This document shows positions 11,369 to 31,693 of a stretch of 42,792 nucleotides of DNA, piece by piece. The position numbers and the translations under genes were made by a program. Origin of the DNA: Actinomycetes bacterium (GTDB taxonomy: Bacteria; Actinomycetota; Acidimicrobiia; Acidimicrobiales; RAAP-2); assembly GCA_021828005.1 (NCBI GenBank), contig JAKATJ010000001.1:8211-51002 (forward strand), read 5' to 3'. Numbering within the stretch: position 1 is the stretch's first letter; each line of letters starts with the position of its first letter. The notes beneath the pieces were generated by a model. The model ran no database searches, was not told the DNA's origin, and saw only the letters and a list, made by a program, of their open reading frames with translations.

Positions 11369-11382
11369 GGGCCAGAGGTCCC
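11369..11382 (-). promoter_or_regulatory. DevR/DosR-box-like site (minus strand GGGACCTCTGGCCC)
   Basis: Plus strand GGGCCAGAGGTCCC matches GGGCC-N4-GTCCC exactly. Confidence 0.6.
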
Positions 11383-11390
11383 TCCGATGC

Positions 11391-11404
11391 GGGCCGAAGG
11401 TCAC
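11391..11404 (-). promoter_or_regulatory. Second, tandem DevR-box-like site (minus strand GTGACCTTCGGCCC)
   Basis: Plus strand GGGCCGAAGGTCAC; one mismatch; 22 bp centre-to-centre from the first box. Confidence 0.5.
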
Positions 11405-11427
11405 AACCTGCGGGCCGTCGCGCATCG

Positions 11428-12369
11428 TCAGGAGGCCCAGGATCCCCGCTCGAGCCGGTGGCGCAACGTCGCGATCGCGCGCATCTCGATCTGGCGCACA
11501 CGCTCGGCGGAGATCGATAGCGCCGCACCCACTTCCGCCGCGGTGCGGGGGCCCTGGGAGGGCCCGATTCCGTAGCGCATCCGCAGGACCGTCGCGGCCG
11601 ACGCCGACAATTGCTCGAGGAGGTGGTCGACCTCACCGGGGAGGACAGCTGAGATCGCGACGTCCCCGACGTCCCTCGAAGAGTCTGCGACGAGCTCGCC
11701 GAGCTCGCTGCCGTCTTCATCGATCGGAGTGGACAGGGACACCACGGGAGCCGCAGCCCTGCGGATCGCGACCACGTCGGCCACCCGGATGCCGGTCTCG
11801 TCGGCGAGCTCGCACGTCCCGGGAGCGTGCCCCAGGTCGCGTTCGAGCCGCTCCGCGGTCTCCGACAGCATCCGCGCCTGTTCACGGCGATGCCGCGGGA
11901 GCCGCACCGACGACGAAGAGTCGCCCACGGCCTGCGCGACGCCCTTTCGGATCCACCAGGTCGCGTACGTCGAGAACTTGTAGCCGCGCCGCCAGTCGAA
12001 CCTCTCGATCGCATGGAGCAGTCCGACGTTTCCCTCCTGGACGAGATCGGCCAAGTCGACGCCGCGGTGCTGGTAGCGCTTGGCGATCGAGACGACCAGG
12101 CGGAGGTTGGACCTCGTGAATTCCTGGCGAGCCCGGCTGCCCGCTTCGACCGTCTTCTGCAGCGCCTGCCTCCGCTTGCGGCTCATCCGTCGTACGCGCC
12201 CGAGCTCTGCCGCTGCGTGCTCGCCTTCCTCGATCGCCTTGGCGAGGCGCACCTCGTCTTCTCGGGAGAGGAGCGCGTGCCACCCGAGCTCGTCGAGGTA
12301 CATGCGGATGAGGTCGATGTCTCGCTGGCCGGGGCGGTCGCCGGAGTCTCCTCGGTCGTGCTGCATCAT
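11428..12369 (-). CDS. RNA polymerase sigma factor, sigma70 group 2 (SigB/HrdD-like)
   Basis: SNLRLVVSIAKRYQHRGVDLADLVQEGNVGLLHAIERFDWRRGYKFSTYATWWIRKGV; regions 3 and 4 with SISAERVRQIEMRAIATLRH. Confidence 0.93.
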   Translation of the reverse strand: MMQHDRGDSGDRPGQRDIDLIRMYLDELGWHALLSREDEVRLAKAIEEGEHAAAELGRVRRMSRKRRQALQKTVEAGSRARQEFTRSNLRLVVSIAKRYQHRGVDLADLVQEGNVGLLHAIERFDWRRGYKFSTYATWWIRKGVAQAVGDSSSSVRLPRHRREQARMLSETAERLERDLGHAPGTCELADETGIRVADVVAIRRAAAPVVSLSTPIDEDGSELGELVADSSRDVGDVAISAVLPGEVDHLLEQLSASAATVLRMRYGIGPSQGPRTAAEVGAALSISAERVRQIEMRAIATLRHRLERGSWAS

Positions 12370-12586
12370 CGCTGCCTCCGTTCCCGGCGCGTCGTCGCGC
12401 CGGCACGAGCCATGAGTAACCCAGCACGCAGCGGCGGGCTAGAGACGGAAGTCCCTTCGCCTCGTCGAGCACTCTCGAGACGCCGCGTCCGGCTCGGCTT
12501 GGACTCCTCTTGGCTCAAGGTAGGAAAGGACGTTCGACCCTCCCAGAGCTTTGGGCCCGCGAGGGACGCTTGGGAGGGAGGAGAGC

Positions 12587-14563
12587 GTGACCACCACCCA
12601 CAGTCCTCGCCCTCACGGCGCCTGCCGCAGGATCCCTGGCCCGAGCAAGAGGGCGCGCGGGACGGCGGCAAGGTTCCTCGTCGCCCTCGCGATCAGCGCG
12701 GCGACCACCGTCTTGTCCTCTGCGCCCAGCGCGTCGGCGGCACCCCGAGCCGAACGCGGCGCCAAGGGCGTAGCAACGCTGTCGCTGAGCCAACTGCTCT
12801 CGCTCGCGCGGCGGGGCGCCATCCGTTCCGCCGTCCTGGACACAGCCGCCGACACGGTGAGCGGGGCCTTCGCCCAGCACGACGCCACGCGGGACTACGA
12901 AGCCGCCTACCCCTCCGGCTACGGCGTCCGCCTCACCGAACAGCTCTTGGCCGACCGCGTGAACCTCTCCGCGGCGCCGGTAGCCCGAGGCGGGTCCTAC
13001 ACGGCGGTCGTCGCCGCGGTCAGCACGGGCACGCTGCTCGTCCTCTTCTGGATCGCGCTCGCCGCGCGCCGTCGCCGCGCGGGGGCCGGCGCGCACCCGG
13101 GGAGGCTCGGCGGCTCGCAGTCAGCCGCGAACCCGGCGGGGTTCGCCAAGGGTCACGGAGAGCAGGCCGAGGTGCCGCCGACCCGCTTCAGCGACGTCGC
13201 AGGGCTTGACGAAGCCGTCGACGACCTCTCCGAGCTCGTGGACTACCTGAGGGACCCCGAGAAGTACCAGGCAGCCGGTGCCGACCTGCCCCGTGGGTTC
13301 CTCCTCGTCGGTCCGCCGGGAACCGGCAAGACCCTCCTTGCCCGCGCAGTCGCCGGGGAGGCGGGCGTACCGTTCTTCGCGATCTCGGCGTCGGAGTTCG
13401 TCGAGAGCTACGTCGGGGTCGGCGCAGCGCGCGTCCGCGCGCTCTTCGACCGGGCGCGGGAGGCGACGTCGGCGATCGTCTTCATCGACGAGCTCGACGC
13501 GATCGGCAGGTCGAGGAGCAGCCACTCGGTGCCCGGCAACGAGGAGCGGGAGAGCACGCTGAACCAGCTGCTCGTCGAGATGGACGGCTTCGCCACGTCG
13601 GCGTCGGTCATCGTGCTCGCGGCCACGAACCGCCCGGACATCCTCGATCATGCGCTCTTGCGCCCGGGGCGCTTCGACCGGCAGATCGCCGTGCCCACCC
13701 CCGACCGGCGAGGACGGCTGCGCATCCTCGACCTCTACCTCCTCCGGCGCCACGTCGCGCCCGACGTGGACGCCGAGGTGCTGAGCAGGCGCACGGCCGG
13801 GTTCAGCGGGGCCGACCTCGCCAATCTCGTCAACACCGCGGCCCTGATCGCGGTACGCGCAGGGAAGCACTCCATCACGAGCTCCGAGCTGGACGAGGCG
13901 CTCGCGACCGTCGCGCTCGGACCTGCCCGCAAGTCCGCGTCAGTCGCAGCCGAGGACCGCCGGATCACGGCGTGGCACGAAGCCGGCCACGCGCTCGTCG
14001 GTCTGTGGCTCGAGCACGCAGCGGACCCGATCTCGGTCTCCATCGTCCCGCGAGGGCTGGCGGGAGGGGTGACGTGGTTCCCCGGGCACGACGACATGTT
14101 CCTCCGCCGCCGCCAGGCCACTGCGCAGCTCGCCGTCGCGATGGCCGGGCGAGCGGCCGAAGAGCTGCTCCTCGGCGACGACTTCACCCAGGGGGCGGCC
14201 CAGGACTTCAAAGCGGCGACGGAGCTGGCGCGCCGGATGGTGACCGAGTACGGCATGGGCTCGACGGGGCCCGGCTTCATCCTTCCCGAGGAGACGCACA
14301 TCGGCGTCCTCGCCGAGCGCGTCCACGCCTCCGTGCAGGTCCTCCTCGAAGAGGCGCTCTCGTGCGCCCGCGCCCTCCTGTCGCCAGCCCGTGACGTGCT
14401 CGAAACGGTTGCAACGCGCCTCCTCGAGGAAGAGACGATCGACGCCGCGGTGCTGCAGGAACTCGCCGGCCGTCCGTCGTCCGGCAGCGGCGAGGCGAAG
14501 GCCGCGGCGCAAAGCGACCTCGCCGTGACATCGGAGAGCCGCACGACCGCGGGCGCAGCCTGA
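12587..14563 (+). CDS. FtsH-like AAA+/M41 zinc metalloprotease, divergent N-terminus
   Basis: [27 protein letters not shown] (SRH), [22 protein letters not shown]; signal-peptide-like N-terminus, then a TM segment. GTG start. Confidence 0.9.
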
Positions 14564-14574
14564 AACGGGTTGAC

Positions 14575-16080
14575 ATGGGAGCAGAGGTCTCGGCGGCCGG
14601 AGGGCATCCGGGGCCGCGCATGGATGCCACTACCCTCGAGACGCACATGTCCGTGCTGTTCTTCTACGGGCAGCACGTGCTCAAGGTGCGAAAGCCCGTG
14701 AGCTACGGATTCGCCGACTTCCGCGACGTCGAGCGGCGTCGGGCAGACTGCCGGCGAGAGGTGCAGCTGAACCGCCGGCTCTCGCCGGACGTGTACGTGG
14801 GGACCGCCAGGGTGCTCTTTCAAGGGCGCACCGCCGAGCACGCGGTCCTCATGCGGCGGCTGCCATCGACACGAAGCCTCGCCTCGATCGTTGCGAGCGG
14901 CATCGACCCGCTTCCGGAGCTTGGGCGTGTCGCCGAGGTGCTCGCACGCTTCCACGGCCGCGCGGTGCGGTCCCCTGCGATCTCCGCGTCGACGACCCCT
15001 GCGGCGATCTGGCAGCGGTGGCAGGCCACTGAGGAAGCGCTCGGCCGCTTCGTCGGAACGCTCGTGGACGCGAGGGACTACCGGCGGCTGGTGAGCCTCG
15101 CGCAGCGCTTCCTCCGGGGATGGAGTCACCTGTTCCTGCGCCGGATCGCGTCGGGAGCGGTGTGCGACGGCCACGGAGACCTGCAGGCGGCCGACGTGTT
15201 CTGCCTGCCAGACGGCCCGAGGCTCCTCGACTGCCTCGAGTTCGACGACACGCTCCGCTACGGCGACGTCCTCGCCGACGCAGCCTTCTTGGTGCAGGAC
15301 CTCGAGCGCATGGGTGCGCCCGGCGCGGCACGCGCGTTCATCGAGGCCTACCGGCGGTCGTCTGGGTCGGAGCAGCCGGAGCCACTGCTGCACTTCTACG
15401 TCGCCTTCCGCGCCCACGTGCGCCTTCTCGTCGAGTGCCTCCGCCTCGAGCAGGACCTCGGCGAGCCGGCGGATCCCCCCGCGGTCCTCGCACAGGCGCT
15501 CTCACATCTCGAAGCGGCGATCCCCCGGCTGGTGCTCGTGGGCGGTCTCCCCGGGAGCGGGAAGTCCACCCTCGCGTCGTGGGTCGGCGAGGAGCTCGGC
15601 GCAACGGTGCTCTCCACCGACAGAGTCCGCACGACGAAGGCCACACGATGTGCCGGTCCTGTGCCGTTCGGCACCGGCCGCTACACGTTCCGAAGGAGGC
15701 TCGGCGTGTATCGGCAGATGTTGGCGCAAGCAGAGGACTCCTTGCGCGACGCCGGCTCCGTCGTCTTGGACGCCACCTGGTCGAACGCGGCGTTCCGTCG
15801 ACTGGCCATGGCGACGGCTCGGTCGACGGCCGCGACGGTCGTCGAGCTCGAGTGCCGCACCGGCCCCGACGAGCGGGCGAGGAGGATCTTCGAGCGCGGG
15901 CGGGCGGGCCAGTCCGACGCGACGCTCGCGATCGCCGAGGCGCTGGCCGCATCGTCGGACCCATGGCCCACCGCTCACGTCGTCGACACCTCGGGCTCCG
16001 TCGAAGAGGCCGGCAGGGGCGTGCTCGAGGTGCTTCGCGCCGGGACGCCCGCGCACGATGCACCGACGGCGGCGCCTTGA
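14575..16080 (+). CDS. Bifunctional APH-like phosphotransferase / P-loop ATPase (COG2187 + COG0645, Rv2004c-like)
   Basis: KVRKPVSYGFADFRDVERRRADCRREVQLNRRLSPDVY...GDGHGDLQAADVFCLPDGPRLLDCLEFDDTLRYGDVLAD...VLVGGLPGSGKSTLASWVG. Confidence 0.85.
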   Translation: MGAEVSAAGGHPGPRMDATTLETHMSVLFFYGQHVLKVRKPVSYGFADFRDVERRRADCRREVQLNRRLSPDVYVGTARVLFQGRTAEHAVLMRRLPSTRSLASIVASGIDPLPELGRVAEVLARFHGRAVRSPAISASTTPAAIWQRWQATEEALGRFVGTLVDARDYRRLVSLAQRFLRGWSHLFLRRIASGAVCDGHGDLQAADVFCLPDGPRLLDCLEFDDTLRYGDVLADAAFLVQDLERMGAPGAARAFIEAYRRSSGSEQPEPLLHFYVAFRAHVRLLVECLRLEQDLGEPADPPAVLAQALSHLEAAIPRLVLVGGLPGSGKSTLASWVGEELGATVLSTDRVRTTKATRCAGPVPFGTGRYTFRRRLGVYRQMLAQAEDSLRDAGSVVLDATWSNAAFRRLAMATARSTAATVVELECRTGPDERARRIFERGRAGQSDATLAIAEALAASSDPWPTAHVVDTSGSVEEAGRGVLEVLRAGTPAHDAPTAAP

Positions 16081-16100
16081 CGCCTCGCGGCCCGAAAGGC

Positions 16101-16140
16101 GCGACCACCTCACCGACGTGGCGACCACCTCACCGACGGC
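16101..16140. repeat. 20-bp tandem direct repeat upstream of the devR-like gene
   Basis: gcgaccacctcaccgacgtg / gcgaccacctcaccgacggc (first 18 bp identical). Confidence 0.9.
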
Positions 16141-16162
16141 CCGGGCGTGGCAGACTCTTCGT

Positions 16163-16837
16163 GTGAGCCTCCGGGTCTTCCTCGTCGACGACCACGAGGT
16201 CGTCCGGGCCGGGCTCCGCTCGCTCATCGAATCCGAAGAGGACATCGCCGTCGTCGGCGAGGCGGGAAGCGTGGAGGAGGCGCTGGTCCGGATCCCGCTC
16301 GCGAAGCCAGACGTCGCGATCCTCGACGTTCGCCTCCCCGACGGGAGCGGCATCGAGGTCTGCCGCCAGATCCGGTCCGACCACCCGCAGATCGCGTGCC
16401 TGATGCTCACCTCCTACGCCGACGACGATGCGCTGCTCGCAGCGATCATGGCCGGTGCGGCCGGCTACGTCCTCAAGCAGGTCGGGGGCATCGACCTCGT
16501 CGCCGACATCCGCACGGTCGGCGCAGGCGGGACGCTGCTCGACCCGAAGCTCACCGAGCGAGTTCTCGACAGGTTGCGGCGCGGCCCCCAAGAGGACGAG
16601 CGGCTCGCCACCCTCACCCCCCAGGAGCGACGGATCCTCGACCGGATCGCCGAGGGCCGGACCAACCGGCAGATCGGCGAGGAGCTCTTCCTCGCAGAGA
16701 AGACCGTGAAGAACTACGTCTCGAACCTGCTGGCGAAGCTCGGCATGGAGCGTCGCACCGAGGCAGCGGTCTTCGCGACGAAGCTGGCCGAGCGACGCGC
16801 GTCGCTGACCCGTCAGGAGCCGACGGGCGGCTCGTGA
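16163..16837 (+). CDS. devR: NarL/LuxR-family response regulator, DevR/DosR-like
   Basis: VFLVDDHEVVRAGLRSLI...VGEAGSVEEAL...PDVAILDVRLPDGSGIEVCR...LFLAEKTVKNYVSNLLAKLGMERRTEAAVFAT closely resembles mycobacterial DevR from memory. Confidence 0.88.
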   Translation: MSLRVFLVDDHEVVRAGLRSLIESEEDIAVVGEAGSVEEALVRIPLAKPDVAILDVRLPDGSGIEVCRQIRSDHPQIACLMLTSYADDDALLAAIMAGAAGYVLKQVGGIDLVADIRTVGAGGTLLDPKLTERVLDRLRRGPQEDERLATLTPQERRILDRIAEGRTNRQIGEELFLAEKTVKNYVSNLLAKLGMERRTEAAVFATKLAERRASLTRQEPTGGS

Positions 16838-17202
16838 CCGGCGTCGTTCACGGCGCGACGAACGCTGTCTCGCCGCCGGTGCGCGCGCAGGTCCACGCCG
16901 GCAGCTTCCAGCGCCTCTTCGAGACGCCTCCGCTCCTTCTGCGGACATGTGAACCGCCAGGCTCCACATGGGATCCCCTGAAGGCGGCAGAGACCGATGA
17001 GCGCACGGTCGTACCGCAGCTCCGTGGCAACGCGCGACGGGGCGTCGGGCCGGCGGGCAGGGGCGATGGCCTGGTCGGTACGGAGCCGGTCTCGGCACTC
17101 GGAGAGCTCCTGAAGGAGGCCCTTCTCGCTCGAGGCCGCGGCCTTTGAAGCCTCGTCCTCCTGGCTCAACGACATTGCCAGGAGCTCGCTGTACATCGAC
17201 AT
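16813..17202 (-). CDS. Conserved hypothetical protein (MSMYSELLAMSLSQ...)
   Basis: 129-aa ORF; 25-bp tail overlap with devR; DevR-box-like site about 38 bp upstream of its ATG. Confidence 0.65.
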   Translation of the reverse strand: MSMYSELLAMSLSQEDEASKAAASSEKGLLQELSECRDRLRTDQAIAPARRPDAPSRVATELRYDRALIGLCRLQGIPCGAWRFTCPQKERRRLEEALEAAGVDLRAHRRRDSVRRAVNDAGHEPPVGS

Positions 17203-17239
17203 CGTCGCCAATCTCGTGTCCGCCACTCCACGACCCTCG

Positions 17240-17253
17240 GGGACTGTCGGCCC
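17240..17253 (+). promoter_or_regulatory. DevR/DosR-box-like site GGGACTGTCGGCCC
   Basis: Exact GGGAC-N4-GGCCC in the divergent intergenic region between 16813..17202 and the histidine kinase; a weaker copy lies at 17296-17309. Confidence 0.6.
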
Positions 17254-17440
17254 GCTGGGGCACTCTGGGCACCACTCTTGGGCGCGGGAGCTATCGGGAA
17301 CAGGGTCCTCGGTCACACGCAGAGCCCCGTGTCGTGAGACGTGCCCGCCGGTACGGGAGTGCTCCGGGGACCCTGCCGCAGGACCTATGCTCGCACCGAG
17401 GGAAGCGATCGGACGCAGCCCCGTACCGTAAGGATCGGCC

Positions 17441-18583
17441 GTGCCATACAGGCACATTGACGACCCCGCCCGGCTGCGGCGGCTCCTCGAGGCGGTGCTC
17501 CTCCTCGAGGAGGACCTCAGCGTCCCAGTCCTCCTGCGCCACTTCGTCCAAGAGGCGTGCTCCATCACCGGCGCCCGCTACGGCGCGCTCGGGGTGCTGG
17601 ACCACGAGCGCAACGCGATCACCGAGTTCGTCTCCGTCGGCATCTCGGACGAAGAGGCCCAGGCGATCGGGCATCTGCCCACCGGCGCCGGCCTGCTCGG
17701 GCTCCTCGTGACCGACCCCAAGCCTCTTCGGCTCGCGAACATCGCGGACCATCCCGACAGCGCGGGGTTTCCTCCCGGCCACCCTCGGATGCGCTCGTTC
17801 CTCGGCGTCCCGGTCGCCGCCCACAACGAGGTCTACGGCAACCTCTACCTCACCGACAAGATCGGATGGTCCGAGTTCACCGAAGACGACGAGGCTCTCG
17901 TGTCGTCGTTCGCGCACGCCGCAGCGATCGCGATCGAGAACGCGCGCCTCCACGAGCGGGTGCAGGAGATCGCAGTGCTCGAGGACCGCGACCGCATCGC
18001 AAGAGACCTTCACGACTCCGTCATCCAACGGCTCTTCGCGATCGGGCTGTCCCTTCAGGGGCTCGCGAAGCCACCGCTCGAGCCACCGACGATCGAGCGC
18101 ATCCAGCACGCGATCAGAGACCTGGACGACACCATCCGGCAGGTACGGTCGTCGATCTTCGAGCTGGCGAGCACATCCACACCGAAACCCGGACTGCGCG
18201 CGAGCGTGCTCGCGCTCGTGCGCGAGCTGCGCCCGGTCGTCGGGTTCGACGTCTCGGTGTCCTTCGACGGTCCGGTCGACGCGAGCATTCCGGAGCCGAT
18301 CGCCGAGCACCTCCTCTTCACCATCCGCGAGGCACTGACGAACGTCGGCCGCCACGCCAAGGCGTCGCGCGCCTCGGTGCGCCTCCAGACCGACACCGAG
18401 TCGGTGACCCTCGAGATCGTGGACAACGGCCGGGGGCTCGCGGCTGCGACGGGCGACGGCACCACCGGCACCGGCCTCGGGCTCACGAACCTCCGGCGCA
18501 GGGCAGAGAAGCTCGGGGGCGAGCTGGAGCTCAGCACGCCCGAAGGCGGCGGCACCTCGATCCTCTGGCGCGTGCCGGTCTGA
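17441..18583 (+). CDS. devS: GAF-domain sensor histidine kinase (HisKA_3), DevS/DosT-like
   Basis: GARYGALGVLDHERNAITEFVSVGISDEEAQAIGHLPTGAGLLGLL..HPRMRSFLGVPV..GNLYLTDKIG; RDLHDSVIQRLFAIGLSLQ; HATPase DNGRGL, GTGLGLTNLRRRAEKLGG. Confidence 0.87.
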   Translation: MPYRHIDDPARLRRLLEAVLLLEEDLSVPVLLRHFVQEACSITGARYGALGVLDHERNAITEFVSVGISDEEAQAIGHLPTGAGLLGLLVTDPKPLRLANIADHPDSAGFPPGHPRMRSFLGVPVAAHNEVYGNLYLTDKIGWSEFTEDDEALVSSFAHAAAIAIENARLHERVQEIAVLEDRDRIARDLHDSVIQRLFAIGLSLQGLAKPPLEPPTIERIQHAIRDLDDTIRQVRSSIFELASTSTPKPGLRASVLALVRELRPVVGFDVSVSFDGPVDASIPEPIAEHLLFTIREALTNVGRHAKASRASVRLQTDTESVTLEIVDNGRGLAAATGDGTTGTGLGLTNLRRRAEKLGGELELSTPEGGGTSILWRVPV

Positions 18584-18734
18584 GGACATGATCGCGCGGC
18601 GGGCTCGATGAGCGCCGCCCCGTGCACCTGGAGATCCGCGCCGCGCTCGAAGGCCGTCTCGCACCGCTGCTCGCCGAGTCGTCCACGCGCGGCGTGATGG
18701 TGGCTGCCCGGCCCCTCGTGACGGAGCCCAGGAT

Positions 18735-18748
18735 GGGTCGTTGGGCCC
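18735..18748 (+). promoter_or_regulatory. DevR-box-like site GGGTCGTTGGGCCC
   Basis: One mismatch to GGGAC-N4-GGCCC; about 100 bp upstream of the 45-aa ORF. Confidence 0.45.
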
Positions 18749-18783: not shown

Positions 18784-18847
18784 GAGACGCCACCCGTGGT
18801 CGGGCGGGCGGCGGCAAGGGTCCATCGGCTGCGGCAGGGAGTTCATC

Positions 18848-18985
18848 ATGCGGAACACGAAGCGTCGCCCGTCCACTCGAGTTCCTCGAGGCAACCACCC
18901 AGCGCGCATCGCGCTGAGCCCTTACCTGGTCGAGGAGATCACCTTCACGCTCGAAGAGATCCGCCGGGCACGCGACGCGGCCTGA
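18848..18985 (+). CDS. Small protein, 45 aa (MRNTKRRPSTRVPRGNHPARIALSPYLVEEITFTLEEIRRARDAA)
   Basis: ATG preceded by cagggag SD-like sequence; plausible helical C-terminus. Confidence 0.5.
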   Translation: MRNTKRRPSTRVPRGNHPARIALSPYLVEEITFTLEEIRRARDAA

Positions 18986-19025: not shown

Positions 19026-20119
<1,094 letters not shown>

Positions 20120-20476: not shown

Positions 20477-20920
20477 TCAGACCTTCGTGACCGGGATCTT
20501 CTTCGCCTCAGGCTCCTTCTCCGCAGGAAGCGGGATGCGGATCTCGAGCACCCCGTCCTCGTAGGTCGCCTTCACGTCGTCCCCGGACACCCCTTCGGGG
20601 AGGCGAATTGTCCGCGTCAGCTCGCCGTAACGGAACTCGGAGCGGTAATTCTGCTGGCTCTTGCGCTCGAGCTTCTCCTCCCGCTGTGCGTGGACGTGCA
20701 GCAGTCCGTCCGTCACGGTGACCTCGAGGTCCTTCGCCGGGTCGACCCCTGGCACCTCCGTGCGCAGTACGAGCGTCCCTTCTTCCCGGTACTCCTCGAG
20801 CTTGAGCCAACCGCTCTGCTCAAGGTCGAGGTCGAACATTCTGCGCCACCGCTCGGGCACCACGAACGTCGACCAGTCGGACAGCGGATGCTCCCGATGC
20901 TCCCGATGCACGATCGACAT
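20477..20920 (-). CDS. Hsp20/alpha-crystallin family small heat-shock protein
   Basis: LVLRTEVPGVDPAKDLEVTVTDGLLHVHAQREEK...YGELTRTIRLPEGVSGDDVKATYEDGVLEIRIPLP. Confidence 0.95.
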   Translation of the reverse strand: MSIVHREHREHPLSDWSTFVVPERWRRMFDLDLEQSGWLKLEEYREEGTLVLRTEVPGVDPAKDLEVTVTDGLLHVHAQREEKLERKSQQNYRSEFRYGELTRTIRLPEGVSGDDVKATYEDGVLEIRIPLPAEKEPEAKKIPVTKV

Positions 20921-21044: not shown

Positions 21045-21059
21045 AGGGCCGAAAGGCTT
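21045..21059 (-). promoter_or_regulatory. Degenerate DevR-box-like site (plus strand AGGGCCGAAAGGCTT)
   Basis: One intact half site (AGGGCCGAAAG), degenerate other half; hsp20/DinB divergent intergenic region. Confidence 0.35.
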
Positions 21060-21640: not shown

Positions 21641-22747
21641 TCAGGCCGCGCTGCAGCGGTTCGGGCCGAGCTCGAGCGCCCGGACCTCTTCGCTGGACGC
21701 CGTCGTCTCGCCGGCGTTCAACCGGACGATCTCGACGTAGCTCGGTGGCCGGGGGGCGGCGCGCGTCGACGCCCACGACACGAAACGGTCCCGCTCCCAG
21801 GCGAGCTGCGGCACAGCCGCGCGCACGTCGCCAACGCGTGCGGCGACGGGGACGTCGGGCACGACCTCCACGGCGTCGCCGTAGTGCGCGGGCAGCACCC
21901 GCACGTCGTCGGGCCGGCCCGACAGCACCTTATCGAGGGAGACGAAGAGCTCCTGTGCGTACTCGCGCGCATGGTCGGCGAGGTCTGGCCGTCCGACGCC
22001 GTCGACGAAGAGCGTGTCACCGGTGAGGAGCGCCTGCCCATCGAGGTCCAGCACAACCGACCCGAGCGTGTGCCCCGGGGTGGAGAGCACCCGCACCGCC
22101 GCGCGCCCGAGCTCGAGCCGGTCGCCGTCCGCCAGCGGCGCGAAGGGGAACTCGAGCCGGTCGCGGGCGGAGAGGTGCAGCGTGGCGCGCGTCGCTGCGG
22201 CCAGCGCCCTGGCGCCGCTCACATGGTCCGCGTGGAGATGCGTGTCGACCACTCGGGTGACTCGCCAGCCGTTGTCCCTCACGACGTCGAGGGCGTGTGC
22301 GATCTCCGTCGACGGATCGACGACCAGCGCGTCGCCACCCGACGCCACGACGTACGACAGGCAGCCCTTCCCGCGGCGACGGATCTGCACGACGCTGAAC
22401 GGCCCGGCCTCCAACGACGCCATGTCGTAGACGCCGGCCCAGGCGAGCATCCCGCCGACGAGGTTGGCGGCATCGACCCCGGCGGCCCGAAGAACGCCGA
22501 CGGCCCTTGCAGACCGCTCCCCGCCGGCGCACACGACGACGACGCGGCGATCGCTCTCGACGGCCGGGAGCCGGTGCCCGAGGGTAGCGAGCGGAACGTT
22601 CCGGGCCCCGGGGATCGCCCATTCCGCGAACTCGTCGGGCTCGCGCACGTCGACGAGGACCGGTGCGCGTTCGGTGCCGAGCACCGCGGCAAGCTCGACC
22701 GGCGAGACCTCCGCGGACATCGAACCGCTGCTGGTCGCCTGGCTCAT
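21641..22747 (-). CDS. Rhodanese-MBL fold fusion protein (persulfide dioxygenase-like)
   Basis: N-terminal rhodanese (VLVDVREPDEFAEWAIPGARNVPL, VVCAGGERSARA), then MBL (THLHADHVSGARAL, STPGHTLGSV, LLTGDTLFVDGVGRPDL). Confidence 0.9.
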   Translation of the reverse strand: MSQATSSGSMSAEVSPVELAAVLGTERAPVLVDVREPDEFAEWAIPGARNVPLATLGHRLPAVESDRRVVVVCAGGERSARAVGVLRAAGVDAANLVGGMLAWAGVYDMASLEAGPFSVVQIRRRGKGCLSYVVASGGDALVVDPSTEIAHALDVVRDNGWRVTRVVDTHLHADHVSGARALAAATRATLHLSARDRLEFPFAPLADGDRLELGRAAVRVLSTPGHTLGSVVLDLDGQALLTGDTLFVDGVGRPDLADHAREYAQELFVSLDKVLSGRPDDVRVLPAHYGDAVEVVPDVPVAARVGDVRAAVPQLAWERDRFVSWASTRAAPRPPSYVEIVRLNAGETTASSEEVRALELGPNRCSAA

Positions 22748-24156: not shown

Positions 24157-24170
24157 GGGACCATCGGCCC
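24157..24170 (+). promoter_or_regulatory. DevR/DosR-box-like site GGGACCATCGGCCC
   Basis: Exact GGGAC-N4-GGCCC in the intergenic region upstream of the 24358..24855 lipoprotein. Confidence 0.6.
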
Positions 24171-24357
24171 TGGGGATCCGAAGGCACGACGGCCACTGTC
24201 GATGCGGAGGTCAGCGCCCATGACGATCGTGCCCGACTGCGTCGTCTCGGGGCGGCTCGCCGGGCGGCAGCTGACCGCGGACCCCGTTGCCGGCTTGGAC
24301 CCGAGCCGGGCCACGGACCGTCCGAGACCGCACCGGCGGGAGCCGAGGAGGGACATC

Positions 24358-24855
24358 GTGCGACCGGGACTCCCAACCTTTCTCGTCCTCAGCCTGGTGC
24401 TCGCCGTGCTCGCGGGCGCTTGCGGCTCGGGCGCTCCGGCGCAACCCCAGGCGAGGATGAGGAGCGAGATCGGGCGCGCCTACGCGACCCTGTTCGACTT
24501 CGCCGACCATGACGTGAAGACGAAGATGGCGGTCATCCAAGACGGGACGGTCCTCCACTCGGCCATCACCGAGGCCCTGTCGTCCCCTCTGGCGGCGAAG
24601 GCCACCGGCGCGAAGGTCATGGCGGTGAAGCTGCTCCCCAAGGCCCGCTGCGACGAGGCGGTCCTGCCCTCACCGTGCGCGCGGGTCACCTACGACCTCC
24701 TCGGCCCCTCCGGTCGGCCGCTCTTCACCACCCCCTCGACCGGCTACGCAGTGGAGGTCCGTGACCGGTGGCTCGTGGCGACGTCGACGATCTGCGGCTT
24801 GCTCGGGCTCTTCTACTCCGCGTCCGGGCGTCCGGGTCGACCACCCGGCTGCTGA
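24358..24855 (+). CDS. Hypothetical lipoprotein
   Basis: VRPGLPTFLVLSLVLAVLAGACGSG (lipobox LAGAC), AYATLFDFADHDVKTKMAVIQDGTVLHSAITEAL. GTG start; an alternative in-frame ATG is at 24220. Confidence 0.75.
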   Translation: MRPGLPTFLVLSLVLAVLAGACGSGAPAQPQARMRSEIGRAYATLFDFADHDVKTKMAVIQDGTVLHSAITEALSSPLAAKATGAKVMAVKLLPKARCDEAVLPSPCARVTYDLLGPSGRPLFTTPSTGYAVEVRDRWLVATSTICGLLGLFYSASGRPGRPPGC

Positions 24856-25691
24856 GGTGACCGATGTTGCGCGGACGACGAAGCTGCGCCGGCCACCGGG
24901 GCGCGCTGCGGCAGGAGACGGGCCACCACCGGCAGGACCTCGGCCACCGACCCCTCCGCCGCGACTCGGCCTCGCACGAGCACCACGGCGCGATCGGCCA
25001 TGGCGAGCACCCGGTCGACATGCTGCTCGACGACGAGCAACGAGGTGCCCGCGTCCCGGACCGCTCGCAACGCGCCGAACACCTCGTCGACGACAGCTGG
25101 CGCGAGGCCGAGCGACAGCTCGTCGACCACCAGAAGGCGCGCCGGCACGGCCAGCACCTTTGCGAGGCTCAGCATGCGCTGCTCTCCGCCTGACAACGTG
25201 CCGGCCAGCTGGTGCCGCCGCTCTGCGAGCCGGCCGAAGGCGCCGAACGCCCTGTCGAGGGCACCTTTCGACCGGCGTCGCCCGAGCAGGGCGCGAGCCG
25301 CCAGCTCCAGGTTCTCCTCGACCGTCAGCGACGCCAGGACCGAGCGACCTTCCGGCGCATGGGCGATGCCCGCTCGCGCAATGCGCCACGCCGGCCAGCG
25401 AGTGATCTCGCTCCCGGCGAGCCAGACGGAGCCGGCCTTCGCCCGCACCAAGCCCGAGACCACCCTGGCGACGGTGGACTTTCCCGCTCCGTTCGAGCCC
25501 ACGAGGGCGACGACCGAACCCTCGGGCACGGTGAACGACACCCCGAACAACGCGCGGTACGGGCCGTAGGACGCCTCGACGCGACGGAGCTCGAGGAGCG
25601 GCCGTCCGTCAGCCAGGCTGCGCGCGCCCTGGGCAACCGCGGTCGCGTCGATCCCCGGCCCCGCGTCGATCCCCGTCACCACGGCGCTCAC
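24813..25691 (-). CDS. livF: Branched-chain amino acid-type ABC transporter ATP-binding protein (LivF-like)
   Basis: VALVGSNGAGKSTVARVVSGL, HAPEGRSVLASLTVEENL, LSGGEQRMLSLAKVL; GTG start overlaps the LivG stop. Confidence 0.9.
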   Translation of the reverse strand: MSAVVTGIDAGPGIDATAVAQGARSLADGRPLLELRRVEASYGPYRALFGVSFTVPEGSVVALVGSNGAGKSTVARVVSGLVRAKAGSVWLAGSEITRWPAWRIARAGIAHAPEGRSVLASLTVEENLELAARALLGRRRSKGALDRAFGAFGRLAERRHQLAGTLSGGEQRMLSLAKVLAVPARLLVVDELSLGLAPAVVDEVFGALRAVRDAGTSLLVVEQHVDRVLAMADRAVVLVRGRVAAEGSVAEVLPVVARLLPQRAPVAGAASSSAQHRSPQQPGGRPGRPDAE

Positions 25692-26440
25692 CGGCCCGAA
25701 CCGAGGTAGGCCCTGCGCACCGCGCCATCGGCCAGCACCGCGTCGACCGGGCCGTCCGCGATCACCCTGCCCACGTCCAGCACCACGAGCCGGTCCACCA
25801 CTGCGGTGACCAAGTCCAGGTCGTGCTCGACCAGGGCCACGGCCACGCCTCGCTCGCGACGGACCCGCCCGAGCACCGACACCAGAATGGTGCGCTCCCC
25901 GTCGTCGAGCCCCGACGACGGCTCGTCCAGCATGAGGAGCTTGGGCGGGCCGACGAGCGCACGCGCGAGCTCGACCAGCCGGCACCGCCCGAGGTTGAGC
26001 GCCTCGACCGGCACGTCCGCCACGTCGCCCAGCCCGACGAGCTCGAGCAGGTCGTCGGCCTCGCGTCGCTCGCGCGGCGCCGGCCGGCCCAGCCCGACCA
26101 CGTCCTTCCACAAGCGTCCACCGCCGCCCCGGACCCTCTCGGTTACGAGGAGGTGCTCGCGCGGCGTCATGCCGCCGAACAGCTCGAGGCGCTGGAACGT
26201 CCTCCCGATGCCGAGCAACCCCCGGCGAAAGGTCGGCAAACGGTCGATGCGTCTGCCGTCGAAAGCGATCCAGCCGGCGTCTGGCTCCACGACCCCGAGG
26301 ATGCAGTCGAACAGCGTCGTCTTGCCTGCGCCGTTCGGTCCGACGACGCCGACCGATCCGCCGGCGTCGATGCGCAGCGACACGTCCGAGAGCGCGACGA
26401 CGCGGCCGAACCGCTTGGTGAGGCCCGCCGTCTCGAGCAT
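25688..26440 (-). CDS. livG: Branched-chain amino acid-type ABC transporter ATP-binding protein (LivG-like)
   Basis: VVGPNGAGKTTLFDCILG, GIGRTFQRLELFGGMT, LLMLDEPSSGLDD. Confidence 0.9.
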   Translation of the reverse strand: MLETAGLTKRFGRVVALSDVSLRIDAGGSVGVVGPNGAGKTTLFDCILGVVEPDAGWIAFDGRRIDRLPTFRRGLLGIGRTFQRLELFGGMTPREHLLVTERVRGGGGRLWKDVVGLGRPAPRERREADDLLELVGLGDVADVPVEALNLGRCRLVELARALVGPPKLLMLDEPSSGLDDGERTILVSVLGRVRRERGVAVALVEHDLDLVTAVVDRLVVLDVGRVIADGPVDAVLADGAVRRAYLGSGR

Positions 26441-26448
26441 GGCCGCGG

Positions 26449-28470
26449 TCACCGCCGATCGCCCCCATGCAGGTGCGGGCGCAGGTGTGGGCGCAGGTGC
26501 CCGTGGCGCTGCCCGGTGGCGGCGCCGGAGGGGCCGGCATACGTGGGCTCTGCCCGCTGGAGGTGGCGGGTCAGCTGCTCCGCCCGGTCGAGCACCCAGG
26601 CCTTGCCGTAGGCGACCACGCCCTCGGGATGGCGGACATAGGTGAGCGCCGCCAACGCGAAGACGAGCGCGAGCAGCGAGCTGAACCGGCTCGACAGCGT
26701 GCTGGTGAGCTGCATGAGCACCGCGTAGAGGACGCCGGCCTCCAGCGCGCCGGCGACCGAGTACACGCCGACGGCGGCCACCACGACGACGTAGACGAGC
26801 GAGAACTGGTAGTTGAAGTCGTTCACGGAGATCGACTGCTGCAAGGACGCGTACAGGGCGCCGCCGATCCCGGCGATGGCCGCCGACAGCGTGAACGCCA
26901 CGACACGCAGCCGCCGCATGTCGATCCCGATGGCCGCCGATCCCCGCTCCGAGCCGCGAAGCGCGGCGAGCTCCCGGCCGATCGTCCCCCCCTGGACCAG
27001 CTTCACCGCCCCGGCCAGCAGGACCAGGAAGGCCAGGACCAGCCAGAAGAAGGCACCGTTGCCGGCGAAGCTGACGGTGCCCACCTGCGGGCGCGGCACT
27101 GTGAGGCCCGTCGCGCCGTTGCCGGACCATGGGTAGAGGAACAGGACGTTTGTCGCCAGCAGGGCGAACGAAAGCGTGAGGAGGCCGACCGCGATGCCCC
27201 CGAGACGCAGGGCCGGCAGCGCGACCACGGCGCCGAGCGCGGCGGCCAACAGCCCGCCGAGCAGGACGGCGGCGAGGACCGGCACCGCGTGCATGGCCAG
27301 CTGGCCGGCGGTGAAGGCGCCCGCGCCGGCGAACGCTGCCTGGCCGAGGGAGATCTGGCCGCCCATCCCGGTGAGCAGGGTGATGGAGAGGAAGACGATC
27401 GAGAGGACGGTGCCGAGGGTGAAGACGAACTCCCAGCTGCCCGGGACGAGGACCACGGTCGTGGCCACGAGCATGCCCGCGACGAGCACGCTGAACGCCC
27501 GGCTGCCCACGGCGACCTGGGTCATGCGCGCCGGGGCCCGGAAGGCGAGAGCCGGCGGGTCGCAACTGGCGAGCGGGTCCCGCGCGGCGGGCTGGCGCAG
27601 GGTCCGGCGGGCGACGAGCGCGATCGCCAGGACCACGAACGGGAACGCCGGGCGCAGACCCGACGACAGGATCGTCCCCGAGGGCAGGTAGCCGGCGAGG
27701 AGCTGCTGGGCGATCCCGAGCCCGATCGCTCCGGCCAACACGAGCGGCAGGCTCTCGAAGCCGCCGATGGCCGCGGCGGCGATGGCGGCGACGAGCAGGG
27801 CCGTGAAGTTGGGAGCGCTCACGGTAGCGAAGAGCGGGGCGAGGAGCACCCCGGCCAGCCCCGCGAAGAGGCTGGAGAGCACCCAAGCCGTGGCGCTCGT
27901 GCGGTCGGCCCGCACGCCGGACAGCTCCGCCATCCGTGGGCTCTCCACCACGGCCCGCATGCGCAACCCGAGGCCGCTCGAGCGAAGCACCAGCGCGAAC
28001 AGCCCGACCACCACCACGGTGATCACCGTGGTGGACAGCTCCCCGCCGCTCACCGGGGTGCTGCCAAGGCGGAAGTAGATCTTCCAGGTCTGCAGCACGA
28101 GCGAGGACGGGAGGCGTGTCGAGGTCCCGATGATCATCTGCGTGACGCTCGGGATGGCGATGAGGAGACCGAGGGCCGGGACGAGCTTGACCAGCGGCCC
28201 GGCCGTGCGCGTGTAGCGGAAGAGGAGCCGCTCCATGGCGAGCCCGATGGCGGGGCTGGCGACCAGGACCGCGACGACGAAGGCAGCCCACGCCGGCCAG
28301 GCGTCGTGCACGGCGATCGAGAAGATGATCGCCGAGACGTATGCCTGGGCGCCGAAGGCGAGGTTGAACACGCCCGACGCCCGGTAGGTGAGCACCAGCC
28401 CGGCCCCCATGAGCGCGTAGGCGCATCCGTAGGGGATGCCGGGGAGGAGGAACGAGAGGAAAAGCGCCAC
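26449..28470 (-). CDS. Fused LivH-LivM ABC transporter permease
   Basis: 673 aa; LivH half (GIPYGCAYALMGAGLVLTYRASGVFNLAFGAQAY) and LivM half (LLTGMGGQISLGQAAFAGAGAF); His-rich C-terminal tail. Confidence 0.92.
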   Translation of the reverse strand: MALFLSFLLPGIPYGCAYALMGAGLVLTYRASGVFNLAFGAQAYVSAIIFSIAVHDAWPAWAAFVVAVLVASPAIGLAMERLLFRYTRTAGPLVKLVPALGLLIAIPSVTQMIIGTSTRLPSSLVLQTWKIYFRLGSTPVSGGELSTTVITVVVVGLFALVLRSSGLGLRMRAVVESPRMAELSGVRADRTSATAWVLSSLFAGLAGVLLAPLFATVSAPNFTALLVAAIAAAAIGGFESLPLVLAGAIGLGIAQQLLAGYLPSGTILSSGLRPAFPFVVLAIALVARRTLRQPAARDPLASCDPPALAFRAPARMTQVAVGSRAFSVLVAGMLVATTVVLVPGSWEFVFTLGTVLSIVFLSITLLTGMGGQISLGQAAFAGAGAFTAGQLAMHAVPVLAAVLLGGLLAAALGAVVALPALRLGGIAVGLLTLSFALLATNVLFLYPWSGNGATGLTVPRPQVGTVSFAGNGAFFWLVLAFLVLLAGAVKLVQGGTIGRELAALRGSERGSAAIGIDMRRLRVVAFTLSAAIAGIGGALYASLQQSISVNDFNYQFSLVYVVVVAAVGVYSVAGALEAGVLYAVLMQLTSTLSSRFSSLLALVFALAALTYVRHPEGVVAYGKAWVLDRAEQLTRHLQRAEPTYAGPSGAATGQRHGHLRPHLRPHLHGGDRR

Positions 28471-28491
28471 GACGTGCCCGCGCTCTTCTGA

Positions 28492-29802
28492 TCAGGTCGG
28501 TGGCACGCCGGCTGGCACGGGGTTCAGCACGCTGATCGGTCTTGTCGCCGGGGGATGGGGCGTCTCGAAGCAGGAGAACACGCTCTTCTTCGTGCCGTAG
28601 ACGGGGACGAACGTCTTCCCCTCGGCTTGGACGAACGCATTGCAGTTGATCGGGCCGGAGCTCGTGTGGGCGGTGCGCCAGTCGACCGGGGCGAGAATTG
28701 TGTCGGCGGTGAACGACTTGAACGTGTTGATGGCGTGCACCAGGCGGCTGCGCGTCAGGTTCCGGCCCACCGCCCTCAGGCCCTCGACGAAGAGGGCCGC
28801 GCTCGTCCAGCCCGCGAGCGCCGTCTCCGAGGGCAGGGTGCGCGGGAAGTACCGCTTCAGCGTCTTCTGGAACTGGTCCATCCCTGGGTAGGCGCCGGGG
28901 TGGAGCTTCGTGACCTCGAACGGCACGTTCGGCTCCATGAAGTAGACACCTTGCATCGACGACGTGTGCTGGCGGATGGCGTTCTCGTCGTAGCCTGTCG
29001 CCCAAAGCTGCGTGACGCCCGTCATGCCTGTCGCTCTCATCGTCTGTGACAGAAGCACGTCGCCGCTGAGTGTCATGCACGACACGACCATGTCGACCTT
29101 CGCCTGCTTCATGCGGGTCACGTCGGCGTGAAGGTCGCTGGCCGGGGCGGGGATCGCGAGGTCCTCGTAGGCGATGGGGACGTGGTACCTGCGGAGCCCG
29201 TTCACCATGCCTCTGCAGCCCTGCTGGGACTGGGCGACGTTGTAGGCCAGCACCGCCGCCGCACGGACATGGTGCTGCTGGGCGACGAACGCGGCCTGGA
29301 CGTTGGGAGACGTGAATGTGATGTACGAGCCGTTGTTGCCGTACAGGCTCGGGCCGTCCATCCACTGGGGGTTCACGTGCAGCCCGAACGTAGGCACGCC
29401 TTGCGCGGCGAGGAACTTGCCACCGGCGAAGGACGCAGTCGCCACCGCCACCACTGCGAACACGTGGTACTGGTCGACCAGCGTCCGGGCCTGGCTCGCG
29501 TCGATCGACGGGCTGGACTGGTCGTCGAGCGTGTAGGCGAGGTCGATCTCGCGGCCGTCCACGCCGCCCTTCGCGTCGACCATGTCGATGTACGCACGCG
29601 CCCCTGTGACCACCGGGGCGAACAGGGCGGGCAGCGGGCCGGTCTGCGAGACGAGGGCGCCCACGACGACGCGTGTCGAGTACACGCCCGTCGTGCCGTT
29701 CTCGGGGGCGTTGGTGGACGTCGAGGCGCACCCCGTCAGGACCGCCGCCAGGAGGACGCTGACGAGCACGGCCACGACGCGCGCCGCGCTGGAGGTCCGC
29801 AC
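28492..29802 (-). CDS. ABC transporter substrate-binding lipoprotein (LivK-like)
   Basis: Lipobox VLTGCAS; VVVGALVSQTGPLPALFAPVVTGARAYIDMVDAKGGVDGREIDLAYTLDDQSSP. The ORF extends to 29904. Confidence 0.9.
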   Translation of the reverse strand: MRTSSAARVVAVLVSVLLAAVLTGCASTSTNAPENGTTGVYSTRVVVGALVSQTGPLPALFAPVVTGARAYIDMVDAKGGVDGREIDLAYTLDDQSSPSIDASQARTLVDQYHVFAVVAVATASFAGGKFLAAQGVPTFGLHVNPQWMDGPSLYGNNGSYITFTSPNVQAAFVAQQHHVRAAAVLAYNVAQSQQGCRGMVNGLRRYHVPIAYEDLAIPAPASDLHADVTRMKQAKVDMVVSCMTLSGDVLLSQTMRATGMTGVTQLWATGYDENAIRQHTSSMQGVYFMEPNVPFEVTKLHPGAYPGMDQFQKTLKRYFPRTLPSETALAGWTSAALFVEGLRAVGRNLTRSRLVHAINTFKSFTADTILAPVDWRTAHTSSGPINCNAFVQAEGKTFVPVYGTKKSVFSCFETPHPPATRPISVLNPVPAGVPPT

Positions 29803-30135
29803 GCCGCGGGGCCGCCGCCTCTGGTCGGTCCCGCCTCGCGCACGCGTGCCCAGACCGGGGTCATGCTCCTCCACGATCGCATGGTGCGTCGCCGGCTGAC
29901 CCACGAGACAGTGCCGAAGGTCCTGCCCACGCCGTCCGGCGGACGCCGCAAGAGCCGGACGAGGACCGACCGGCTCCTTGCCGGCGACGCGTTCTCATGA
30001 CCAAGGTCCCTGTTGCAAACCGTTGTGCCGAGTCAACATATGGGCATGGCGTACGGCACCGCGGGATTGTGAGGCGGACGGATCACCGCGGTCGCCGTGC
30101 GTCGCCGCACCCGGCCGGTGACGCCGGGCGGGGCC

Positions 30136-30924: not shown

Positions 30925-30932
30925 CGGGGCTC

Positions 30933-30996
30933 CTCGTTCGGAATGCTCTCAACGAGAACCGGAGCGGCAGGAAGCTGCCGGTTCACTGCGCTGAAC
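30933..30996. promoter_or_regulatory. Cluster of inverted repeats in a divergent promoter region (possible MarR operator)
   Basis: ctcgtt..aacgag (30933-30956); gaaccgg..ccggttc (30956-30984) with nested cggcag-gaag-ctgccg; gttca..tgaac (30981-30996). Confidence 0.5.
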
Positions 30997-31103
30997 AGGC
31001 GGTTCGGCTATTCTTTGGCCTACAGTAACCTCGTCGGTAGTCTCCGACACTTCACCAGCGGAGGGGAAATGATGCATCCCGCAATGATGTGTGGGGTCGC
31101 CTC

Positions 31104-31610
31104 GTGACGGCGCTTCCAGAACCGTCCACCCACTCCGCGTCCATCGAAGCGGTCATCGCCTTCGTCGAGGCGATCGACACGGCGCAGTCGGCGCTCCGCG
31201 CCATCGGCGACGACGCGCTGAACGACCTCGGAGGGGGGATCACCACGACCCAGCTGCGCCTCCTCGACCGGCTCGAGCGCCTCGGCGAGTCCAGGCTGAT
31301 CGACCTCGCAGACGCGCTGTCGATCGCGCCGTCGACCGCGACGCGTCTGTGCGACGCGTTGGCGGAGCGCCAGCTCATCGTGCGGCACCGCCGCGGTCGC
31401 GACCGTCGTGAGCTGCAGATCCGGCTGACCGAGGCCGGCACGCAGCTTTTGGAGGCCGTGCGCGGGCGCACCGTGAGCGAGTGGACGCGGGCCCTCGCCG
31501 GCATCAGCGAAGAGGAACGCCTGCACGTGGAGCGCGTCCTCGCAAGGATCGCCCCCCCAGAGGCGGAGCAGGGTCCGCCCGGGGACCCCGCCCACGAGCT
31601 GTCCGCCTAG
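31104..31610 (+). CDS. MarR family transcriptional regulator
   Basis: TTTQLRLLDRLERLGESRLIDLADALSIAPSTATRLCDALAERQLIVRHRRGRDRRELQIRLTEAG. Confidence 0.92.
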   Translation: MTALPEPSTHSASIEAVIAFVEAIDTAQSALRAIGDDALNDLGGGITTTQLRLLDRLERLGESRLIDLADALSIAPSTATRLCDALAERQLIVRHRRGRDRRELQIRLTEAGTQLLEAVRGRTVSEWTRALAGISEEERLHVERVLARIAPPEAEQGPPGDPAHELSA

Positions 31611-31679
31611 CACCCGCGTCCGCAGGGGAGCCCGCGCCGGCGCGGCGGCAGCGCGCGGCGGTGGCACGCGGCGGCATTC

Positions 31680-31693
31680 GGGACGTTCGGCCC
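31680..31693 (+). promoter_or_regulatory. DevR/DosR-box-like site (TTC)GGGACGTTCGGCCC
   Basis: Exact GGGAC-N4-GGCCC with a TTC flank, 140 bp upstream of the MFS start. Confidence 0.6.

What the first reader, a model, noticed from the sequence alone, without database searches (positions are those of the whole stretch)
11369..31693. Candidate DevR (DosR)-type regulon with several uncharacterised members
Four intergenic sequences match GGGAC-N4-GGCCC or its complement exactly: 11369-11382 (minus strand GGGACCTCTGGCCC), 17240-17253 (GGGACTGTCGGCCC), 24157-24170 (GGGACCATCGGCCC) and 31680-31693 (TTCGGGACGTTCGGCCC). Near matches lie at 11391-11404, 18735-18748 and 12442-12455. This resembles the mycobacterial DosR box (TTSGGGACTWWAGTCCCSAA and natural variants). 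The window also encodes a DevR-like regulator, a DevS-like GAF kinase, Hsp20 and an Rv2004c-like protein, all hallmarks of the DosR dormancy/hypoxia regulon in mycobacteria. Most genes next to the boxes have no assigned function, so this may be a lineage-specific hypoxia or redox regulon.
Basis: partly seen in the sequence, partly recalled or inferred. Interest (0 to 1): 0.72.

Follow-up and report, generated by a model that had tools for sequence, protein, structure and literature searches.

The report
DosR-type oxygen-response regulon in Acidimicrobiales
An uncultured actinobacterium carries a close relative of the tuberculosis bacterium's dormancy switch together with its DNA docking sites, so an oxygen-response regulon known from mycobacteria and Streptomyces also exists in a distant class, where it appears to control different genes, including a general-stress sigma factor and an oxygen-sensitive-type aromatic-degrading enzyme.

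Summary
All listed sites exist; a fifth exact match (3427-3440) is coding and probably chance. The loose core GGGACN4GGCCC is not enriched genome-wide (25 vs 23 control), but a weight matrix built only from relatives finds 9 hits of at least 12 bits in the window (0.37 expected), 8 intergenic. Orthologous promoters in 10 related genomes keep the boxes while flanks diverge: the tandem pair 11369/11391 in 11 of 11 genomes, 12442 in 8 of 8. More boxes lie at 12527, 29911, 29997 and 17303; 17240 is poorly conserved. The regulator (16163-16837) is closest to M. tuberculosis DevR, its phospho-Asp and DNA-reading positions invariant in 90 homologues; the adjacent kinase has a DosS/DosT-type GAF with the heme histidine. 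Boxes are enriched in genomes that carry devR, not in those lacking it. Best reading: a true DosR/DevR regulon in Acidimicrobiales, autoregulated, with lineage-specific targets (group-2 sigma factor, FtsH-like protease, Rv2004c-like protein, membrane protein, Liv operon; elsewhere a benzoyl-CoA-reductase-like operon). Hypoxia as signal, and binding itself, are inferred. New member of a known kind.

The parts
16163..16837 (+). devR/dosR-like response regulator (REC + LuxR HTH), 224 aa
   Evidence: PDB best hit M. tb DevR 3c3w E 4.5e-73; Pfam Response_reg + GerE; D55, K105, K180, K183, N184 invariant in 90 homologues; sole close DevR homologue in the genome, next paralogue 38%
17441..18583 (+). 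DosS/DosT-like sensor histidine kinase, one GAF domain, HisKA_3 + HATPase_c
   Evidence: Pfam GAF, HisKA_3, HATPase_c; GAF aligns to DevS GAF-A 2y8h E 2e-45 and DosT 2vzw E 3e-42 with the heme-His and distal-Tyr positions kept and Gly at the Glu87/Gly85 position; His kept in 8/8 relatives
11369..11382 (-). DosR-type box A of a tandem pair upstream of membrane protein 10681-11271
   Evidence: 14.3 bits; pair 22 bp apart, footprint in 11/11 genomes, also where the upstream gene is not sigB
11391..11404 (-). DosR-type box B of the tandem pair
   Evidence: 13.0 bits; footprint in 11/11 genomes
10681..11271 (-). Membrane protein of unknown function, best-conserved target in this lineage
   Evidence: no Pfam hit above cut-off, no NCBIfam hit; homologue in all 10 relatives examined
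12442..12455 (-). DosR-type box in the sigB/ftsH2 divergent promoter
   Evidence: 14.2 bits; aligned and kept in 8/8 genomes, directly upstream of devR in G011 and G002
12527..12540 (+).
   Evidence: AAAGGACGTTCGACCCTC, 15.8 bits; kept in G001, G005, G008, G009, G012
11428..12369 (-). Group-2 (SigB-type) sigma-70 factor
   Evidence: Pfam sigma70 r1.2/r2/r3/r4; NCBIfam RpoD 262 bits and SigB 252 bits, below the curated cut-offs
12551..14563 (+). FtsH-like AAA/M41 protease (second FtsH paralogue)
   Evidence: Pfam AAA + Peptidase_M41; NCBIfam FtsH_fam 583 bits, just below cut-off 600
14575..16080 (+). Rv2004c-like protein (APH-like + AAA_33)
   Evidence: Pfam AAA_33, weak APH; homologues at 44-45% in devR loci of Pseudonocardia (L068), Frankiaceae (L075) and another actinomycete (L106)
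17240..17253 (+). Weak DosR-like site between 16813-17211 and devS
   Evidence: exact core but 8.9 bits; intact only in the window and G009
17303..17316 (.). Conserved degenerate DosR-like site upstream of devS
   Evidence: AACAGGGTCCTCGGTCACA, in 7 of 8 aligned genomes; 8.0 bits
16813..17211 (-). Small protein of unknown function divergent from devS
   Evidence: conserved ORF; no family hit
18735..18748 (.). DosR-type box about 100 bp upstream of a 45-aa ORF
   Evidence: 14.2 bits; kept in G008 and G009
18848..18985 (+). Small ORF, 45 aa (MRNTKRRPSTR...)
   Evidence: about 90% identical in G008 and G009, not found in more distant relatives
24157..24170 (+). DosR-type box upstream of a lipoprotein-like gene
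   Evidence: 18.7 bits; in G008 as GGGACCATCGACCC; exact upstream of similar lipoprotein-like genes in G001, G005, G012
24220..24855 (+). Lipoprotein-like gene (start 24220 or 24358)
   Evidence: ORF conserved in G001, G005, G008; no Pfam or NCBIfam hit
29911..29924 (-). DosR-type box upstream of the liv operon
   Evidence: 11.3 bits; GACAGTGMCGAAGGTCCTGC kept in 4/4 genomes aligned, including two with inverted gene order
29997..30010 (.). Second DosR-type box upstream of the liv operon
   Evidence: 15.2 bits; kept in G008, absent in G001/G005
24813..29904 (-). Branched-chain amino acid-type ABC transporter (LivK-LivHM-LivGF)
   Evidence: Pfam Peripla_BP_6, BPD_transp_2, ABC_tran
31680..31693 (+). 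DosR-type box upstream of an MFS efflux transporter
   Evidence: 19.8 bits; kept in G008, G011, G019; absent in G001/G005, where the intergenic region is short
31803..33671 (+). DHA2-type MFS efflux transporter
   Evidence: Pfam MFS_1; NCBIfam efflux_EmrB subfamily above cut-off
21046..21059 (.). Degenerate DosR-like site between hsp20(-) and DinB-like gene(+)
   Evidence: 5.5 bits; same position occupied in 5 aligned genomes, better matches in G001/G005
20477..20920 (-). Hsp20 small heat-shock protein
   Evidence: Pfam HSP20; other Hsp20-like genes in G001, G005, G012 have exact boxes (Hsp20 identity read from sequence)

Best explanation
This is the core of a genuine DosR/DevR regulon in an Acidimicrobiales bacterium. 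Proposed mechanism: a DosT-like single-GAF heme kinase (17441-18583) is inhibited by O2 and, when O2 falls (or NO/CO binds), autophosphorylates and phosphorylates DevR (Asp55). DevR~P binds 14-18 bp near-palindromic boxes (consensus about AGGGACYTTCGKCCCT), cooperatively where they are paired 22 bp apart, and activates its own operon (ftsH2, Rv2004c-like gene, devR), the divergent group-2 sigma factor, an unknown membrane protein, a liv transporter operon, a lipoprotein and an MFS pump in the window, and an ATP-dependent benzoyl-CoA-reductase-like operon elsewhere. Shown: the proteins, their diagnostic residues, the boxes, their conservation and their co-occurrence with devR. Inferred: binding, activation rather than repression, the O2 signal, and the operon structure.
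For: DevR best PDB hit is M. tb DevR. Phospho-Asp, Lys104 and DNA-contact Lys/Lys/Asn positions invariant in 90 homologues. Kinase GAF with heme-His and distal-Tyr positions and a DosT-like Gly (residue roles from PMC4082495). Relatives-only matrix: 9 hits vs 0.37 expected, 8/9 intergenic. Footprints in up to 11/11 genomes. GGGACNWWNGKCCC in 46 devR+ relatives 433 vs 149 control, in 15 devR- relatives 43 vs 32; phylum sample 285 vs 169 in 45 devR+ and 142 vs 238 in 73 devR- genomes, one outlier left out, Mann-Whitney p 0.0013. In 80 named devR loci 57 vs 3 control. Target types recur across relatives (Hsp20, Zn-ADH, lipoprotein, membrane protein). Boxes directly 5' of devR in G011, G003, G004, G002. 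Box 5' of the bcr-like operon in 4/4 genomes carrying it. The motif agrees with S. coelicolor OsdR AGGGCCGATCGGCCCT (PMC5069765).
Against: No binding or expression data. The loose core is not enriched genome-wide in this genome. Some devR- genomes have motif excess (G015 12 vs 2) and some devR+ ones none (G003, G059). Genomes are not phylogenetically independent, so the p-values are optimistic. Box 17240 is poorly conserved and the window Hsp20 box is degenerate. The kinase has only one GAF domain.
Confidence: 0.86

Rival explanations
1. The boxes are operators of this DevR, but the system mainly senses redox state, NO/CO or another cue rather than low O2.
For: DosS-family GAF sensors respond to NO and CO, and redox sensing is debated (PMC4082495); targets include transport and efflux genes, not only respiratory ones.
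Against: The position equivalent to DosS Glu87 is Gly, as in the O2 sensor DosT; an anaerobic-type ring-reductase operon carries a box.
Confidence: 0.25
2. The sites are operators of another NarL/LuxR-type regulator and not of the adjacent DevR.
For: The genome has 11 further, weaker matches to the DevR query.
Against: The next paralogue is only 38% identical; boxes cluster around devR and track devR presence; the motif matches the OsdR/DevR consensus.
Confidence: 0.05
3. The palindromes are transcription terminators or RNA hairpins between genes.
For: Palindromes form hairpins; 11369/11391 lie just downstream of sigB; the C88 place lies between convergent genes.
Against: Boxes occupy divergent promoters (sigB/ftsH2), and the membrane-protein pair stays about 100 bp upstream of its gene where the neighbour is devR or ftsH2 (G003, G004, G019); spacing of the pair is constant.
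Confidence: 0.04
4. Chance matches in 71% GC DNA.
For: GGGACN4GGCCC is as frequent as its reversed control genome-wide; 3427 and C154:28935 are coding.
Against: Footprints, intergenic bias and relatives-only matrix.
Confidence: 0.02

Closest known systems
DosRST / DevRS dormancy regulon of Mycobacterium tuberculosis
   Same: Orthologue-like regulator with conserved phospho-Asp and DNA-contact positions, DosS/DosT-type heme-GAF kinase, box of the GGGACTWWAGTCCC type, closely packed paired sites, Hsp20 and Rv2004c-like genes nearby
   Different: One GAF in the kinase; devR sits behind ftsH2 and an Rv2004c-like gene; a group-2 sigma factor, FtsH-like protease, liv operon and bcr-like operon carry boxes
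OsdR/OsdK of Streptomyces coelicolor (PMC5069765)
   Same: DevR-type regulator outside mycobacteria, near-identical palindrome AGGGCCGATCGGCCCT, stress genes around the regulator gene
   Different: The nitrate reductase and universal-stress-protein targets emphasised there were not seen next to the boxes examined here; different class of Actinomycetota
DosRS of Mycobacterium abscessus (PMC10034137)
   Same: Conserved regulator with a species-specific target set
   Different: Defined by mutant and RNA-seq there; here predicted from sequence in an uncultured lineage

Membership tests
DosR/DevR response regulator | Closest homology to DevR among NarL-family regulators | tested here: met
   3c3w E 4.5e-73 vs VraR 2e-42
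DosR/DevR response regulator | Equivalents of Asp54, Lys104 and of DNA-contact Lys179/Lys182/Asn183 (the last three from my own knowledge; K182 also PMC5999986 abstract) | tested here: met
   D55, K105, K180, K183, N184, invariant in 90 homologues
DosS/DosT sensor kinase | GAF-A with proximal heme His149 and distal Tyr171 equivalents | tested here: met
   aligned; residue roles in PMC4082495; His kept in 8/8 relatives
DosS/DosT sensor kinase | Heme binding and O2/NO/CO-dependent autokinase activity | not testable with these tools
   needs purified protein
DosS/DosT sensor kinase | Two GAF domains (GAF-A and GAF-B; from my own knowledge) | tested here: not met
   Pfam reports one GAF stretch, residues 27-166 of 380; hence called DosS/DosT-like, not a DosS
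DosR regulon | DosR-type box upstream of several genes, enriched over control and conserved | tested here: met
DosR regulon | Boxes in the regulator's own promoter | tested here: met
   by position only: boxes in the sigB/ftsH2-2004c-devR promoter, directly 5' of devR in G011, G003, G004, G002
DosR regulon | Regulator binds the boxes and induces the genes in hypoxia | not testable with these tools
   needs EMSA or DAP-seq and RNA-seq
DosR regulon | Typical targets such as hspX/Hsp20 carry strong boxes | tested here: inconclusive
   window Hsp20 site is degenerate (5.5 bits); Hsp20-like genes of G001, G005, G012 have exact boxes

The most novel reading that the evidence does not exclude
A DosR-type oxygen switch has been recruited in Acidimicrobiales to drive (a) a group-2 sigma factor and an FtsH-like protease, making a hypoxia-to-general-stress cascade, and (b) an ATP-dependent benzoyl-CoA-reductase-like operon, that is, oxygen-gated anaerobic ring reduction in an actinobacterium, with the operon and its operator possibly exchanged together between species.
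Probability: 0.45. Interest if true: 0.62.

Novelty: new member of a known kind. Interest (0 to 1): 0.5.

Why it matters
It places a DosR-type regulon in a deep, largely uncultured class of Actinomycetota, which suggests that the tuberculosis dormancy switch derives from an old environmental gas response rather than from adaptation to a host. It gives a testable list of operators and targets, including unnamed genes and an oxygen-sensitive-type aromatic-degradation operon, and the box/devR co-occurrence is a simple way to map such regulons across the phylum.

Tried and rejected
The loose core GGGACN4GGCCC was dropped as a genome-wide measure because it equals its reversed control; GGGACYWTCGGCCC with 2 mismatches was only mildly enriched (171 vs 130). 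The pattern GGGACNWWNGKCCC was chosen after seeing boxes in the relatives examined, so searches are not fully blind for those genomes; the phylum sample is largely independent of them. Some relatives contributing training boxes are congeners, so one search is independent of the window sequence but not of its ancestry; the training set was hand-picked. Terminator reading rejected (divergent promoters, constant distance to the gene). 3427 rejected as coding. My simple gene caller misplaced some starts (for example it called boxes of the membrane-protein promoter in G004 'coding'), so coding/intergenic tallies in relatives were not used. No structure prediction was run because sequence matches to solved DevR and DevS were already strong. 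Literature searches for DosR with Acidimicrobi* and for DosR with benzoyl-CoA reductase found nothing in the open-access library, which does not prove absence elsewhere.
Full report
Observation. Five matches against 0.63 expected is more than chance, but the loose core is not informative genome-wide: 25 matches against 23 for the reversed control. A tighter pattern, GGGACNWWNGKCCC, gives 9 strand-hits at 8 places against 0 control in this genome; from the flanking ORFs I read 6 of the 8 as intergenic.

Independent scoring. I built a matrix only from 40 boxes of relatives, leaving out the window and its two closest relatives, and scanned the window. Nine positions reach 12 bits against 0.37 expected in Markov-1 sequence, and eight of the nine are intergenic although only 12.6% of the window is noncoding (binomial p 5e-7). 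The ninth is the coding site 3427. Site 17240 scores only 8.9.

Footprints. The devR region was fetched from nine congeners and one genome of the same family. Upstream of the membrane protein 10681-11271, two boxes 22 bp apart are kept in 11 of 11 genomes while the flanks diverge, and stay at the same distance from the gene where the neighbouring gene is devR or ftsH2 instead of sigB. The box 12442 in the sigB/ftsH2 promoter aligns in 8 of 8 genomes. In genomes without ftsH2 and the Rv2004c-like gene next to devR, boxes lie directly upstream of devR (G011, G003, G004, G002), which points to autoregulation. The liv box 29911 is kept in 4 of 4 genomes, two with inverted gene order. Box 31680 is kept in G008, G011, G019 but not G001/G005; 24157 recurs upstream of similar lipoprotein-like genes in G001, G005, G012. 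17240 is intact only in G009; a degenerate conserved element at 17303 (AACAGGGTCCTCGGTCACA) is the better candidate operator of devS.

Regulator and sensor. The 16163-16837 product is closest in the PDB to M. tuberculosis DevR (3c3w, E 4.5e-73). The positions of the phospho-Asp, Lys104 and three DNA-contact residues are invariant in 90 homologues. The kinase has one GAF domain, HisKA_3 and HATPase_c; its GAF aligns to DevS and DosT GAF-A, keeps the heme His and distal Tyr positions, and has Gly where DosS has Glu87 and DosT has Gly85. This favours an O2-sensing, DosT-like behaviour, by inference.

Co-occurrence. Among 46 relatives with devR the pattern occurs 433 times against 149 for the control; among 15 without, 43 against 32. 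In a phylum-wide sample, 45 devR+ genomes give 285 vs 169 and 73 devR- genomes 142 vs 238, one outlier (G149) left out. In 80 named devR loci of Actinomycetota the count is 57 vs 3. Genomes are related to each other, so these p-values are optimistic, and there are exceptions in both groups.

Targets. In the window: SigB-type factor, FtsH-like protease, Rv2004c-like protein and devR itself, membrane protein, lipoprotein, liv operon, MFS pump, and a 45-aa ORF. Elsewhere in this genome a box lies about 100 bp upstream of an operon encoding two HGD-D-type subunits, two BcrAD-type ATPases, an FrhB-like protein and a ferredoxin, just upstream of a -35/-10-like pair TTGCGT-N17-TATACT, the arrangement reported for DevR targets in M. 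tuberculosis, where the proximal site overlaps the -35 element (PMC3029386). NCBIfam scores for benzoyl-CoA reductase subunits are high but below equivalog cut-offs, so 'benzoyl-CoA-reductase-like' is as far as it goes. The box is present in all four genomes carrying the operon (G000, G007, G008, G009), with changes that keep the palindrome. In G007 the enzyme is 95% identical while DevR is 80%, which hints at transfer of operon and operator together. Other places lie upstream of LigAB-type dioxygenase genes (C68) and a CitE/HpcH-type lyase (C123). In relatives, Hsp20, Zn-alcohol dehydrogenase and the lipoprotein recur.

Taxonomy.

Comparison and verdict. The closest characterised systems are DosRST of M. 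tuberculosis and OsdR of S. coelicolor, whose consensus AGGGCCGATCGGCCCT matches (PMC5069765). Species-specific DosR target sets are known (PMC10034137). Membership tests that can be done by sequence are met, except that the kinase has one GAF and the window Hsp20 box is degenerate. I file it as a new member of a known kind with lineage-specific targets; binding, activation and the O2 signal remain to be shown.

Noticed in passing
L231:3050-8880 (G000 contig C18): Benzoyl-CoA-reductase-like operon with a DosR-type box about 100 bp upstream, conserved in the four genomes that carry the operon; 95% identical enzyme in G007, whose DevR is only 80% identical, suggests transfer.
   Followed up: partly
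G149 (phylum sample): 142 strand-hits of GGGACNWWNGKCCC against 7 control in a genome with two DevR homologues: a very large regulon or a repeat family.
   Followed up: no
window 18848-18985: 45-aa ORF between devS and the HDAC-like gene, about 90% identical in G008 and G009, box about 100 bp upstream.
   Followed up: partly
window 39557-41590 and 12551-14563: Two FtsH-type proteases in one window; of the two only the one next to sigB and devR has a box.
   Followed up: no
window 21641-22740: Rhodanese plus metallo-beta-lactamase-fold protein (persulfide-dioxygenase-like) next to the Hsp20/DinB genes.
   Followed up: no
L232:2206-3409 and L233:4356-5294: LigAB-type dioxygenase genes and a CitE/HpcH-type lyase with strong boxes (21.2 and 21.0 bits) upstream; conservation in relatives not tested.
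   Followed up: no
G000:C88:2478-2491 (L037, L236): Perfect palindrome-type site GGGACCTTCGTCCC between convergent genes, where a promoter role is not obvious.
   Followed up: no
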